From NCBI GenBank assembly GCA_018660265.1, contig JABJKS010000012.1:1-64000 (forward strand): a DNA stretch of 64,000 nt, given 5' to 3'. The notes beneath the pieces are model-generated. The model made no database searches. It was not told the origin of the DNA and saw nothing but the letters and a program-made list of their open reading frames with translations. Positions within the stretch are counted from its first letter, which is position 1, and every line of letters begins with the position of its first letter. The DNA is from Rhodospirillaceae bacterium (GTDB taxonomy: Bacteria > Pseudomonadota > Alphaproteobacteria > GCA-2731375). This document shows positions 2,636 to 43,331 of the stretch, in pieces. The translations under genes and the position numbers were made by a program.

Positions 2636-4054
2636 TCACCCCGCACAGCAGGATAATTTGGCGACATCTTTCTCAAACGTCTGAGCTGCAAGTTTCAGGC
2701 CTTCAACCGTGGTGAGGTAGGGGAAAATCATCTCGCCCAACTCGATATAGGTCATGCCCTGGCGGATCGCCAAGGCGGCGGTTTGGATGCTGTCGGCACC
2801 TTCTGGGGCCAGAATATGTGCGCCCAGCAGGCGTTTCGTGGTCTTGTCAGCGATTAGCTTGATAAGACCACGGGTATCGCGCGCGGCCAGGGCGCGGGGG
2901 ACGTATTCGAGGGGTAGCAGGGATGTCGCGACATCATAACCCGCTAGGATAGCGCCGGCCTCGGTCAGACCTACGGTCGCCACCTGTGGGTCCGTGAAGA
3001 CCACGGCGGGCATGGCATGATTGTCGTACGTCAGGCTGTCACCGTTCAGGGCGTTTTGGGCCGCAATCCTGGCACCGTAGGCGGCCATATAGACGAATTG
3101 ATCCGTGCCCGTGACATCGCCTGCGGCATAGATGCCGGGGCGCGATGTGTGCATGCGGTTATCGACGGCGATGCCGCCGTTGGCGACGGTATCGATGCCG
3201 GCGGTTGCCAGGTTCAGACCGTCGGTATTGGCGAGGCGACCGGCGCACAGCAGCAGCCGTTCGGCCGCCAAAATTCGTGGCTCGCTGCCCATTTGAACGG
3301 ACAACGCAATGCCCGTATCAGACTGCGTAACGCTCTCATAGCTGAGGCCATCAAAGACCTGCAGGCCTTCATCGCGAAGGTAGCCGCGCAGAGCATCGGA
3401 TACTTCTGGTTCTCCTTCGGGCAACAGGCGGCTGCGGCAGGCGATTGTCACCGCCACGCCGGCACGGGCCAGCATCTGGGCCACCTCGCAACCAATATAG
3501 CCGCCCCCGATCAACAGGATGGAGCGGGGTAGTTCCGCCATTTCGAACGCGGTGGTGGAGGTTAAATAGGGGATGCCGGCCAACCCTGGAATGTCGGGCA
3601 CATTGTTTTGGGAACCGGTTGCAATGATGATCTTGTCTGCCGCTACGGGCGCGTCGTTGCAAAGCAGATGATCAGGCGAAAATGTTGCCTGCCCTTCGCA
3701 ATAGGCAACGTCGGGGTAGTTGTCCAATTGATCAAGATACTTGCTCTGGCGCAGGGTTTCGACGAGGTCATCCTTTTGCGCCACCACGGCGGTCCAATCT
3801 GCCAACTCAGCCCTGGCCCGTATGCCCGCGAAACGTTCCGCGTTGCCATTGTGCAGGGTCTCGGTCGCCCGGATCATGGTTTTTGACGGCACACAGCCGA
3901 CGTTGACACAGGTCCCGCCAATGGTGCCATGGCCGATCAAGGCCACGCGGGCACCTTGTTCGGCAGCAGTGATCGCGGCGGAAAATCCTGCCGATCCAGC
4001 CCCGATAACGGCCAGATCATAACTGCCCTCGGGTCGGCAACAGTCAGCCGTCAT
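2636..4054 (-). CDS. merA: Mercuric reductase
   Basis: Cytosolic flavoenzyme that reduces Hg(II) to volatile Hg(0) with NADPH; 472 residues from the chosen ATG at 4054. FAD-binding IGAGSAGFSAA is at residues 17-27, the redox-active pair C49/C54 lies in GGTCVNVGCVPSK, a second Rossmann motif is IGGGYIGCEVAQ, and the C-terminus ends KLSCCAG with the vicinal cysteines that deliver Hg(II). The frame is open back to 4141, but 4054 is preferred because it overlaps the merF stop (ATGA) and gives a normal N-terminus. There is no N-terminal heavy-metal-associated (NmerA) domain. Instead the short tail carries a vicinal pair, C5-C6. It forms a two-gene operon with merF. Confidence 0.95.
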   Translation of the reverse strand: MTADCCRPEGSYDLAVIGAGSAGFSAAITAAEQGARVALIGHGTIGGTCVNVGCVPSKTMIRATETLHNGNAERFAGIRARAELADWTAVVAQKDDLVETLRQSKYLDQLDNYPDVAYCEGQATFSPDHLLCNDAPVAADKIIIATGSQNNVPDIPGLAGIPYLTSTTAFEMAELPRSILLIGGGYIGCEVAQMLARAGVAVTIACRSRLLPEGEPEVSDALRGYLRDEGLQVFDGLSYESVTQSDTGIALSVQMGSEPRILAAERLLLCAGRLANTDGLNLATAGIDTVANGGIAVDNRMHTSRPGIYAAGDVTGTDQFVYMAAYGARIAAQNALNGDSLTYDNHAMPAVVFTDPQVATVGLTEAGAILAGYDVATSLLPLEYVPRALAARDTRGLIKLIADKTTKRLLGAHILAPEGADSIQTAALAIRQGMTYIELGEMIFPYLTTVEGLKLAAQTFEKDVAKLSCCAG

Positions 4055-40772: not shown

Positions 40773-41174
40773 ATGTCAGACAGCGAAAACTACAAAAAAG
40801 GCCGGGAAATCCGGGCCGAACTTATGGGTCCGGCAATGGTCAAGGATATGGCCGCGAACACCTACAATAACCCAACCATGGAAAAATTCGGCCAGTACAC
40901 GTCCGAAGCCATCTTCGGCATGCTGTGGTCCCGTCCTGGCATCGATCTGAAACTGCGAACATTAATCTGCGTAATTTCAGATACCTGCGGGGCCCGTTGG
41001 CCCGAGTTGGATATTCATTTGCGCATGGCCCTGCGCCAAGGCTGGACAGAGGATGAATTGGGTGAAGTTCTGTTGCATCTGGGCGGCTATATCGGCGTGC
41101 CGGCGATCCGGGAGGCCATGGTCATCGCCAATGAAGTCTTCACCGCTGTGGCGAAAGAAGGTGCCGGTGATTGA
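40773..41174 (+). CDS. Small carboxymuconolactone decarboxylase-family protein
   Basis: 133 residues from the ATG at 40773, chosen because GAGAGGA lies upstream; the same frame is open far back inside the ATPase gene but without meaning. LKLRTLICVISDTCGARWPE and LGEVLLHLGGYIGVPAIREA match the CMD fold of 4-carboxymuconolactone decarboxylase-like proteins. One cysteine lies in DTCGA, but there is no CxxC. It sits between a PotABCD-type importer and a fused TRAP permease; its role is unknown. Confidence 0.85.
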   Translation: MSDSENYKKGREIRAELMGPAMVKDMAANTYNNPTMEKFGQYTSEAIFGMLWSRPGIDLKLRTLICVISDTCGARWPELDIHLRMALRQGWTEDELGEVLLHLGGYIGVPAIREAMVIANEVFTAVAKEGAGD

Positions 41175-41225: not shown

Positions 41226-41345
41226 CTAGTGGTGCGAGCGAAACAGAAGAGTCCTTCTGTTTCGTGTCTCGCGCACCACGATTCTTAAGAGTCTAGTGGT
41301 CCGATCCTAGCGGATGGGTACCATCCGTTAGGATCGGACCACTAG
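41226..41345. repeat. 120-bp element of two long palindromes with shared ends
   Basis: The element begins CTAGTGGTGCGA and ends TCGGACCACTAG, so its ends are inverted copies. The left half (41229-41279) is a hairpin of GTGGTGCGAG-CGAAACAGAA with its complement, loop GAGTCC and a small bulge. The right half (41293-41345) has 25-base arms starting CTAGTGGTCCGATCC, with one mismatch (G-U in RNA) and a 3-base loop. It ends 21 bases before the TRAP gene ATG. It may be a dispersed palindromic repeat or a small non-coding mobile unit. It is too far from a T-tract to be an ordinary terminator. Confidence 0.8.
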
Positions 41346-41366: not shown

Positions 41367-43331
41367 ATGGTGGAGCAATATGGACAGTCCGAAAATATGG
41401 ATGACGCTCCACCGTTGGAAGTTTACGAGGAAATCGGCAAGGCGCGGGTAACCGGCGTCGTTTACTGGTTGACGCTGTTTCTGGGTGGCTTTGGTATCAT
41501 TGTGGCGATCAATCAGACTTTTAGTCTGAACGCCTTTAACTTTGTCCTCATCGACAATCAATATTTTTACCTTCTGATTGCGATCTTCCTGTCTCTCGCG
41601 TTTTTGATCTTTCCCGCGCGCAAAAAAGACGCCTCGCATGTGCCCCTCTATGATTGGGCTTTGTTCGCCGTAACCATGGCAACGTCCCTGTTCCTGTCCT
41701 ATCACGGCGGCGACATGATCGACAAAGGTTGGGACCTTGTCGCCCCGCCCGGACCGACGACGGCGGCGGCTATCATGTGCTTTCTGGCCATGGAGGGCGT
41801 GCGCCGGGCCGGCGGCACCATATTGTTCGGCGTTTGTATGGTGTTTTTCACCTTTCCCCTGTGGACGGACTTCGCGCCGGGCTTTTTATGGGGTGCGGGG
41901 AAAACGCCCGTAGAGCTGGTGCGTGCTTATGCCATGGGGTTTGAGAGTATCGTCGGCATGCCCATGCGGGTGGCGGGAAATATCCTTATTGGTTTTTTGG
42001 TTTTTGGTGCTGCATTGGTGGTCACGGGAGGCGGCGAATTTTTCATGAATTTTGCCGCTGCCTTGTTGGGCAGGACCAGGGGCGGCCCGGCCAAGGTCGC
42101 CATTCTTTCCAGTGGATTTTTCGGCTCTCTCAGCGGCAGCGTCATATCCAACGTCGTGACCACGGGGCAATTGACCATTCCGACCATGAAACGCGCGGGC
42201 TACACCCCGGCCTATGCGGCCTCGGTCGAGGCGTGCGCGTCCACGGGCGGGACCTTGATGCCGCCGGTGATGGGGGCAGTTGCCTTTCTGATGGCGGAAT
42301 TCCTGAATATTCCTTACCGGGACATCGTCATTGCGGCTGCCGTGCCGTCGTTTCTGTTTTATCTCGCCCTGCTGCTGCAAGTCGATTGCTATGCCGCCGT
42401 CAAGGGCCTGAAAGGACAACCCGCCTCGGAAATCCCCAGCCTGTGGGGCACCTTAAAGGATGGTTGGTTTTATCTGTTTAGCCTGCTGTTGCTTGTCTAT
42501 CTGCTGGTCTGGGCAAGAATGGAACTCTATGCCCCCTACTATGCGACGGCGGTGTTGCTGGCGTCTGCCGCGATTTTCAGGAAAAAGGAACGACGGTTCA
42601 ATTTCACCAAATTCCGCGAGTTGATCATCGAATCCGCATCGATCATTGCCAGCATTATCGCCATTCTGGCGGGCATTGGCGTTATTGTCGGGTCTTTGGC
42701 CTTCACAGGCGTGGGCGGGGCCTTCTCCCGTGAATTGCTCGGCTATGCGGACGGTAACCTGCCCCTTCTGCTTGCCATGGGGGCGTTGACCTCCTTCCTC
42801 CTCGGCATGGGGGTCACGGTCAGTGCCTGTTATATCTTCCTCGCCATCGTCATGGGGCCTGCCCTGATCGAATTCGGCCTGGACCCTATCGCCTCTCATC
42901 TGTTCATCCTCTATTGGGGCATGATGTCTTACATTACACCGCCCGTCGCCTTGGCGGCTGTCGCAGCGGCGGTGATCGCCAAATCCGGCGCTATGGAGAC
43001 GGCATTCCTGGCCATGCGCCTGGGTTCGATCAAGTTCATATTGCCGTTCATTATTGTACTGACCCCATCGTTGATTATGCGGGGGGAGCCCGGTGCGATC
43101 GTTATCTCTATTGCGGCCTGCGTTGCCGCCGTACTTCTTATGTCGGCTGGCTTCGAGGGCTATTTGTATGGTGTTGGGAAATTGCAATGGCCCACAAGGA
43201 TCGCCTTGCTGGTCGCGGCAGCCGGGTTCATCTATACGGACATATATAGCTATATGGCGGCTGCCGTCCTGGTCGTGGTGACCTATTGCGCGCATCTGTT
43301 TTTGTTCCGCACACGAGAGGCACCGGGTTAG
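41367..43331 (+). CDS. TRAP transporter permease, fused 4TM/12TM (DctQM fusion)
   Basis: 654 residues from the ATG at 41367 (CAGGAG lies 8 bases upstream). The N-terminal DctQ-like part (about 1-130) is joined to a DctM-like part with ILSSGFFGSLSGSVISNVVT, ACASTGGTLMPPVMGAVAFLMAEFL and MMSYITPPVALAAVAAA. Fused permeases usually pair with a TAXI-type binding protein. None is encoded next to it, so the binding protein must come from elsewhere. The 120-bp palindromic element lies directly in front. Confidence 0.93.
   Translation: MVEQYGQSENMDDAPPLEVYEEIGKARVTGVVYWLTLFLGGFGIIVAINQTFSLNAFNFVLIDNQYFYLLIAIFLSLAFLIFPARKKDASHVPLYDWALFAVTMATSLFLSYHGGDMIDKGWDLVAPPGPTTAAAIMCFLAMEGVRRAGGTILFGVCMVFFTFPLWTDFAPGFLWGAGKTPVELVRAYAMGFESIVGMPMRVAGNILIGFLVFGAALVVTGGGEFFMNFAAALLGRTRGGPAKVAILSSGFFGSLSGSVISNVVTTGQLTIPTMKRAGYTPAYAASVEACASTGGTLMPPVMGAVAFLMAEFLNIPYRDIVIAAAVPSFLFYLALLLQVDCYAAVKGLKGQPASEIPSLWGTLKDGWFYLFSLLLLVYLLVWARMELYAPYYATAVLLASAAIFRKKERRFNFTKFRELIIESASIIASIIAILAGIGVIVGSLAFTGVGGAFSRELLGYADGNLPLLLAMGALTSFLLGMGVTVSACYIFLAIVMGPALIEFGLDPIASHLFILYWGMMSYITPPVALAAVAAAVIAKSGAMETAFLAMRLGSIKFILPFIIVLTPSLIMRGEPGAIVISIAACVAAVLLMSAGFEGYLYGVGKLQWPTRIALLVAAAGFIYTDIYSYMAAAVLVVVTYCAHLFLFRTREAPG

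What the first reader, a model, noticed from the sequence alone, without database searches (positions are those of the whole stretch)
41226..41345. 120-bp element made of two long palindromes with matching inverted ends
The ends CTAGTGGT and ACCACTAG are inverted copies, and CTAGTGGT recurs at the start of the second palindrome. Both halves fold into long hairpins of about 20-25 bp. Such paired palindromes resemble REP/BIME-like or MITE-like units moved in trans. It sits directly before a TRAP permease and may affect its expression.
Basis: seen in the sequence. Interest (0 to 1): 0.55.

Follow-up and report, generated by a model that had tools for sequence, protein, structure and literature searches.

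The report
Mobile twin-hairpin DNA element
The 120-base stretch is one copy of a small, gene-less mobile DNA element made of two hairpins that inserts at the sequence CTAG; relatives with the same layout but different hairpin sequences are scattered through Alphaproteobacteria, and the enzyme that moves them is unknown.

Summary
In detail: window 41226-41345 is CTAG, hairpin 1, a 13-nt spacer, then hairpin 2 bounded by CTAG. It is dispersed: 19 places in its own genome, 12 nearly full length, and 7 of 10 other genus members. One relative has the empty site, consistent with one CTAG becoming two. It is a non-autonomous, MITE-like mobile element, not a local operator or RNA. A RAYT link is not supported: three element-rich genomes lack Y1 transposase genes, and 15 Y1 matches elsewhere lie beside no copy.

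The wider pattern is less ordinary. Elements of the same layout occur in many Alphaproteobacteria. Bulges lie almost only in inner hairpin arms (103 against 3). The same genome carries a second family with other hairpins but the same 13-nt spacer. The window copy is atypical: its hairpin 2 lost the usual TTT bulge. No autonomous partner was found; a DDE transposase acting in trans is my inference. Closest described kinds: MITEPsy1, and the alphaproteobacterial repeats RIME and Bru-RS, whose sequences I could not see.

The parts
41226..41229 (.). left outer CTAG: target site copy / outer end of hairpin 1
   Evidence: 23 of 36 full-length copies keep CTAG here
41229..41279 (+). hairpin 1: outer arm 41229-41249, loop 41250-41253, inner arm 41254-41279
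   Evidence: fold; pair counts
41265..41269 (+). TGTCT bulge in the inner arm of hairpin 1
   Evidence: mean column conservation 0.983, above arms, loops and spacer
41280..41292 (+). spacer GATTCTTAAGAGT, near-palindrome around CTTAAG
   Evidence: the same 13 nt lie between other hairpins of a second family in this genome
41293..41345 (+). hairpin 2; in this copy nearly perfect because the TTT bulge of the inner arm is missing
   Evidence: 34 of 36 full-length copies keep the bulge, the window copy and L043 do not
41293..41296 (.). inner CTAG at the foot of hairpin 2
   Evidence: a second-family element has inserted exactly here in relative G001
41342..41345 (.). right outer CTAG: target site copy / outer end of hairpin 2
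   Evidence: 31 of 36 full-length copies keep CTAG here
41367..43331 (+). downstream gene, TRAP transporter DctM component (context, not part of the element)
   Evidence: PF06808 E = 1e-87
40776..41174 (+). upstream gene, carboxymuconolactone decarboxylase family (context)
   Evidence: PF02627 E = 1.1e-12

Best explanation
The 120 bp are one copy of a non-autonomous, MITE-like transposable element. Shown: many copies with unrelated flanks, inverted homologous outer ends, and CTAG at both outer ends. The empty site in one relative fits one CTAG turned into two. Inferred: a transposase encoded elsewhere binds the two outer arms, which are uninterrupted inverted repeats, and joins the ends to a CTAG (YTAR-like) target, duplicating it, as IS5-type DDE transposases do. 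Each outer arm has its own inverted copy inside, so each end can fold into a hairpin; the inner copy almost always carries a 3-5 nt insertion, which I read as marking it as 'inside' so that only the outer arm is used as an end. The perfect hairpin 2 of the window copy would be a later templated repair of one arm from the other (quasipalindrome correction). Sub-estimates: mobile element 0.97; four-base CTAG duplication 0.85; DDE enzyme in trans 0.55; bulge as inside/outside mark 0.35.
For: Copies and flanks. Empty site: G006 contig 66 aligns on both sides with 21 bases between the two blocks, against 22 in the window if the element and one CTAG are removed. A cleaner four-base duplication for the sister family: in G001 it lies between CTAG and CTAG inside a family-1 copy whose uninterrupted sequence is known from other copies. 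Outer arms of the two hairpins match at 18 of 24 positions, counted by hand on forms seen. Bulges: 103 in inner arms, 3 in outer arms over 61 elements; bulge columns are the most conserved ones (0.983 and 0.990 against 0.925-0.938 for arms). Symmetric target preference: C at the first outward base 39 of 72, A 1 of 72; G at the third 33 of 72; differs from ordinary CTAG sites of the own genome, p = 4e-5 to 0.01. Precedent: MITEPsy1, 100 nt, duplicates CTAG or YTAA and moves in experiments (PMC3189936, passages seen).
Against: No autonomous copy with these ends: no inward-facing pair of ends 0.5-5 kb apart in 11 genus genomes, 6 named relatives and 3 further class genomes, two of them single-contig assemblies (read by eye). 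No transposase was tied to the element, so the enzyme class is inference. The empty site is diverged (TTGA-like where CTAG would be), so it fixes the length and not the exact bases. Arms paired within each end are unusual for a DDE-type MITE and usual for HUH-type (IS200/IS605, RAYT) substrates (recalled).
Confidence: 0.6

Rival explanations
1. REP/BIME-like unit: each hairpin is a REP-type palindrome with a tetranucleotide foot, moved as single-stranded DNA by a Y1 (RAYT/TIRYT, HUH) transposase.
For: Two inverted homologous hairpins with conserved bulges look like a BIME; bulged hairpins are what Y1 enzymes bind (recalled). The own genome has three Y1_Tnp genes.
Against: No Y1_Tnp match in G061, G003 and G063, all with many copies or ends. 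None of the 15 Y1 rows (14 genes, about 1.5 kb each side, some cut by contig ends) carries an element end or the spacer; the one CTAGTGG, in L269, is not an element. No GTAG or CGTC tag. CTAG lies at both outer ends.
Confidence: 0.15
2. Local operator or regulatory RNA of the TRAP operon that happens to be palindromic.
For: Strong fold; position between a gene and the TRAP gene.
Against: 19 places in the genome with unrelated flanks; absent at the same site in G006; no Rfam match above a gathering score, the one hit is a microRNA model at 28 of 80 bits.
Confidence: 0.02
3. Relic of an extinct system: copies no longer move and persist because insertions at CTAG outside genes are nearly neutral.
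For: In the own genome copies are diverged (86-100 %) and many in the genus are truncated. Stop-codon placement equals background.
Against: The Kiloniellaceae MAG OFTM296 has many nearly identical copies, which points to recent spread there.
Confidence: 0.2

Closest known systems
MITEPsy1 of Pseudomonas syringae (PMC3189936, passages seen)
   Same: about 100 nt, non-coding, inverted ends, duplicates CTAG or YTAA, shown to move
   Different: one pair of 18-nt inverted repeats, GGAAGGTCTGAAAAAGCC; no twin-hairpin layout described in the passages seen; thought to derive from ISPsy2
Bru-RS1/Bru-RS2 of Brucella (seen through passages of PMC2266754, PMC3163539, PMC10800456 and PMC2267715; original 1994 paper not seen)
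   Same: 103-106 bp palindromic repeats of an alphaproteobacterium, insertion hot spots of IS711, which duplicates TA at YTAR
   Different: sequence not seen, so homology and twin-hairpin layout could not be tested
RIME (Rhizobium-specific intergenic mosaic elements; named in passages of PMC2573895 and PMC2245857; original 1995 paper not held)
   Different: sequence not seen; membership not testable here
REP/BIME with RAYT (PMC3733652, passages seen)
   Same: paired inverted palindromes, intergenic
   Different: REP units are 20-40 bp with a GTAG or CGTC tag; no Y1 gene tied to this element

Membership tests
Bacterial MITE | short, without coding capacity | tested here: met
   118-126 bp in 36 full-length copies
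Bacterial MITE | terminal inverted repeats | tested here: met
   outer arms match at 18 of 24 positions, by hand
Bacterial MITE | target-site duplication | tested here: inconclusive
   CTAG at both ends in most copies; empty site fits in length, diverged in sequence
Bacterial MITE | dispersed multiple copies | tested here: met
Bacterial MITE | autonomous element or transposase with matching ends | tested here: inconclusive
   none found in 20 genomes; many are fragmented assemblies and only exact 12-base ends were sought, so absence is weak
REP/BIME (RAYT-linked) | GTAG or CGTC tag at the foot | tested here: not met
   foot is CTAG
REP/BIME (RAYT-linked) | RAYT gene flanked by the repeat | tested here: not met
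RIME | sequence of the described element | not testable with these tools
   paper not held
Bru-RS | sequence of the described element | not testable with these tools
   only described in words in the passages seen

The most novel reading that the evidence does not exclude
Alphaproteobacteria carry one superfamily of twin-hairpin CTAG elements defined by form, not sequence: two hairpins, an insertion always in the inner arm at a similar height, and a short conserved spacer, while the hairpin sequences turn over or are exchanged. The enzyme reads the bulged hairpins and the spacer rather than a fixed end sequence, and would be a transposition system not yet described.
Probability: 0.22. Interest if true: 0.72.

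Novelty: new variant of a known kind. Interest (0 to 1): 0.48.

Why it matters
Small repeats of this size are often set aside when alphaproteobacterial genomes are annotated. Showing that several unrelated-looking repeats share one layout, one kind of target and, within a genome, one spacer gives a concrete handle for finding the enzyme that moves them, and predicts that described repeats such as Bru-RS and RIME may belong to the same class. The copies also seem to show hairpin arms being corrected against each other, a natural record of templated mutation.

Tried and rejected
RAYT link: rejected. Autonomous partner by end pairs: none; a scan of 1.44 Mb of fetched sequence (loci overlap, so not all distinct) for YTAR-flanked inverted ends 0.7-2.7 kb apart gave two hits, both in L136, which turned out to be two inverted copies of a third twin-hairpin family, with nothing transposase-like among the listed ORFs by eye. 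A sequence beside two half copies (L016, L054) looked like a partner but is an unrelated multi-copy element, ends ..CATTTCCCAGAT, that had landed in the spacer. Stop-codon targeting: 14 of 36 full-length copies end a reading frame of at least 140 codons with the TAG of an outer CTAG, but so do 36 of 171 ordinary CTAG sites, 36 of 91 once sites inside long frames are set aside; no preference. Rfam: nothing above a gathering score. Plasmids: no meaningful match in five searches; the 12 Burkholderia rows are a 28-base stretch at E = 0.09. Viral contigs: 0. The first covariance model, R1, had a poor automatic structure and was not used. Literature: searches of an open-access library listed no paper that I recognised as describing this element; I read passages of nine papers only, and subscription papers are mostly not held.

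Full report
What is there. Window 41226-41345 reads CTAG, hairpin 1, GATTCTTAAGAGT, then CTAG, hairpin 2, CTAG. The fold is far beyond chance (z = -12.3, 0 of 200 shuffles), and hairpin 2 is the longest palindrome found in the 64-kb window by a scan for arms of 14 or more.

It is dispersed. Blast of the 120 bp against the own genome (5.55 Mb, 121 contigs) gives 31 rows at 19 distinct places; 12 places cover at least 118 of the 120 bases at 86-100 % identity. The flanks are unrelated. Among 61 genomes (own plus 60 relatives), 9 match: the own one, 7 of 10 other genus members (two of them, G005 and G006, by one weak fragment), and one genome of another genus in the family, G013.

Empty site. The two genes around the window copy are side by side in G006, 81 % identical on the left, with 21 bases between the aligned blocks; removing the element and one CTAG from the window leaves 22. 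The bases at the site are diverged (TTGA-like), so the length and not the letters supports a four-base duplication. A sister-family element inside a family-1 copy of G001 lies between two CTAGs exactly where family 1 normally has one, which shows the duplication more cleanly for that family.

Anatomy. From 36 full-length copies of six genomes (those fetched loci in which at least 108 positions aligned; partial copies were left out): outer CTAG intact in 23 of 36 at the hairpin-1 end and 31 of 36 at the hairpin-2 end. Pair counts on alignment A2: 90.6 % of cells paired; 37 cells with changes on both sides against 15.9 in shuffles, 28 of the 37 in two pairs, 13-45 and 15-38, which separate two lineages. 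That is real covariation but few independent events, and arm-to-arm correction can produce it without selection. The bulge columns are the most conserved part (0.983 and 0.990; arms 0.925-0.938; spacer 0.882; loops 0.796-0.882).

The window copy is atypical. 34 of 36 full-length copies keep the TTT bulge of hairpin 2; the window copy and L043 do not, nor does the partial copy L016. In L076 and L173 the other arm has the complement of the bulge instead, and a copy in the Kiloniellaceae MAG, L227, lacks the corresponding bulge that its sister copies have. Some copies have a symmetric hairpin 1 (L051, L184). I read these as arm-templated correction; it is inference from the sequences.

Short forms. 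In G003, G001 and G010 several copies have hairpin 1 reduced to about 14-21 bases, by deletions whose edges are the repeats TGGTG or ACCA. Whether these spread as such or arose repeatedly is open.

Wider distribution. A degenerate pattern for one outer end, run over 84,980 species genomes, gives 35 stretches; the records named are alphaproteobacterial or, in one case, only 'Proteobacteria'. They include a Kiloniellaceae MAG with many nearly identical copies, Chelativorans, Nitratireductor, Lichenibacterium and Magnetospira; a few of these stretches are decayed or cut and show only part of the layout. Contig lengths suggest that SI072_bin164, PW10, PW8 and BS150m-G9 are members of the window's genus. 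A covariance model built from 11 diverse members finds 14 of 289 class genomes, own included, in 13 genera; only 12 candidates per genome were scored, so copy numbers are lower bounds.

Common form. Over 61 elements, 36 of family 1 and 25 others picked from the loci in hand, each half was folded separately: 103 asymmetric bulges of two or more bases lie in inner arms and 3 in outer arms. The 36 copies of one family are not independent; in the printed rows of the 25 others the larger side of every such bulge is the inner arm. The halves were cut at a fixed fraction of the length, which misplaces the cut in the second family, and five of the 25 show no bulge on the left half and five none on the right.

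A second family in the same genome. In a 400-kb sample (20 stretches chosen by position, not by content) eight TCTTAAGA sites lie outside family 1, and seven are the centre of another twin-hairpin element, some decayed. In the best-preserved one (L225, 105 bp) the spacer equals that of family 1 over 13 nt (score 28, 0 of 500 shuffles reach it). Of the four hairpin comparisons two are at shuffle level (162 and 397 of 500 reach the observed score) and two are weakly above it (34 and 16 of 500), so the hairpins are at most remotely similar. A third family occurs in G001. Chimeric or abutting copies of family 1 with family 2 or 3 exist (L192, L195, L204, L076). This is the least expected result here: the spacer is kept while the hairpins differ. 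Common descent with hairpin replacement, exchange between families, or shared selection on the spacer would all fit. Outside the genus the spacer is different, often near AGATCAATNG (by eye).

Target. Flanks of the 36 copies show C at the first outward base in 39 of 72 and A in 1 of 72, and G at the third in 33 of 72, against 171 ordinary CTAG sites of the own genome (p = 4e-5 to 0.01). The copies come from six genomes and the background from one, so composition may contribute. Placement at stop codons equals background.

Which enzyme. Y1_Tnp (PF01797) genes: 3 in the own genome, none in G003, G061 and G063, which hold many copies or ends; none of 15 rows (14 genes) lies by a copy. Ends of a full-size partner: no inward pair 0.5-5 kb apart in 11 genus genomes (4 without any match), 6 named genomes (one without any match) and 3 class genomes. 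MITEPsy1 duplicates CTAG or YTAA (PMC3189936, passages seen), and IS711 duplicates TA at YTAR with a preference for Bru-RS (PMC2266754, passages seen). That ISPsy2 and IS711 belong to the IS5 family of DDE transposases is recalled. I therefore favour a DDE enzyme in trans, at 0.55.

Context. The downstream gene is a TRAP DctM component and the upstream one a CMD-family gene. No promoter-like and no terminator-like site was found inside the element. An effect on the TRAP gene is possible and untested.

Noticed in passing
L225:17974-18078 and L210, L212, L215, L222 (own genome): A more abundant second twin-hairpin family with the same spacer: seven copies seen in a 400-kb sample, some decayed.
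   Followed up: partly
L136:803-909 and 1549-1655 (G001 contig 397): Two inverted 107-bp copies of a third twin-hairpin family about 0.64 kb apart, one abutting a solo hairpin 1.
   Followed up: partly
L265:565-669 (Chelativorans): A 105-bp CTAG-bounded twin hairpin, one half of which resembles a palindrome I recall as common between genes of Hyphomicrobiales; the recall is untested.
   Followed up: no
L016:1560-1699 and L054:1525-1720, and contig ends in G003, G004, G005, G007, G008: A multi-copy mobile element with ends ..CATTTCCCAGAT that breaks assemblies; its two partial reading frames match no Pfam family.
   Followed up: partly
L087:2547-2595 and 3290-3328 (own contig 78): A Y1 transposase gene lies between two copies of a different hairpin, GGGACACAATAC...GTATTGTGTCCC.
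   Followed up: no
L305:1618-1757 (G042, single-contig genome): A 140-bp CTAG-bounded element with very long hairpins (-94 kcal/mol by RNA parameters).
   Followed up: no
L052:1501-1634 (own contig 45): A strongly diverged member with the layout of family 1 and a longer hairpin-1 loop.
   Followed up: partly
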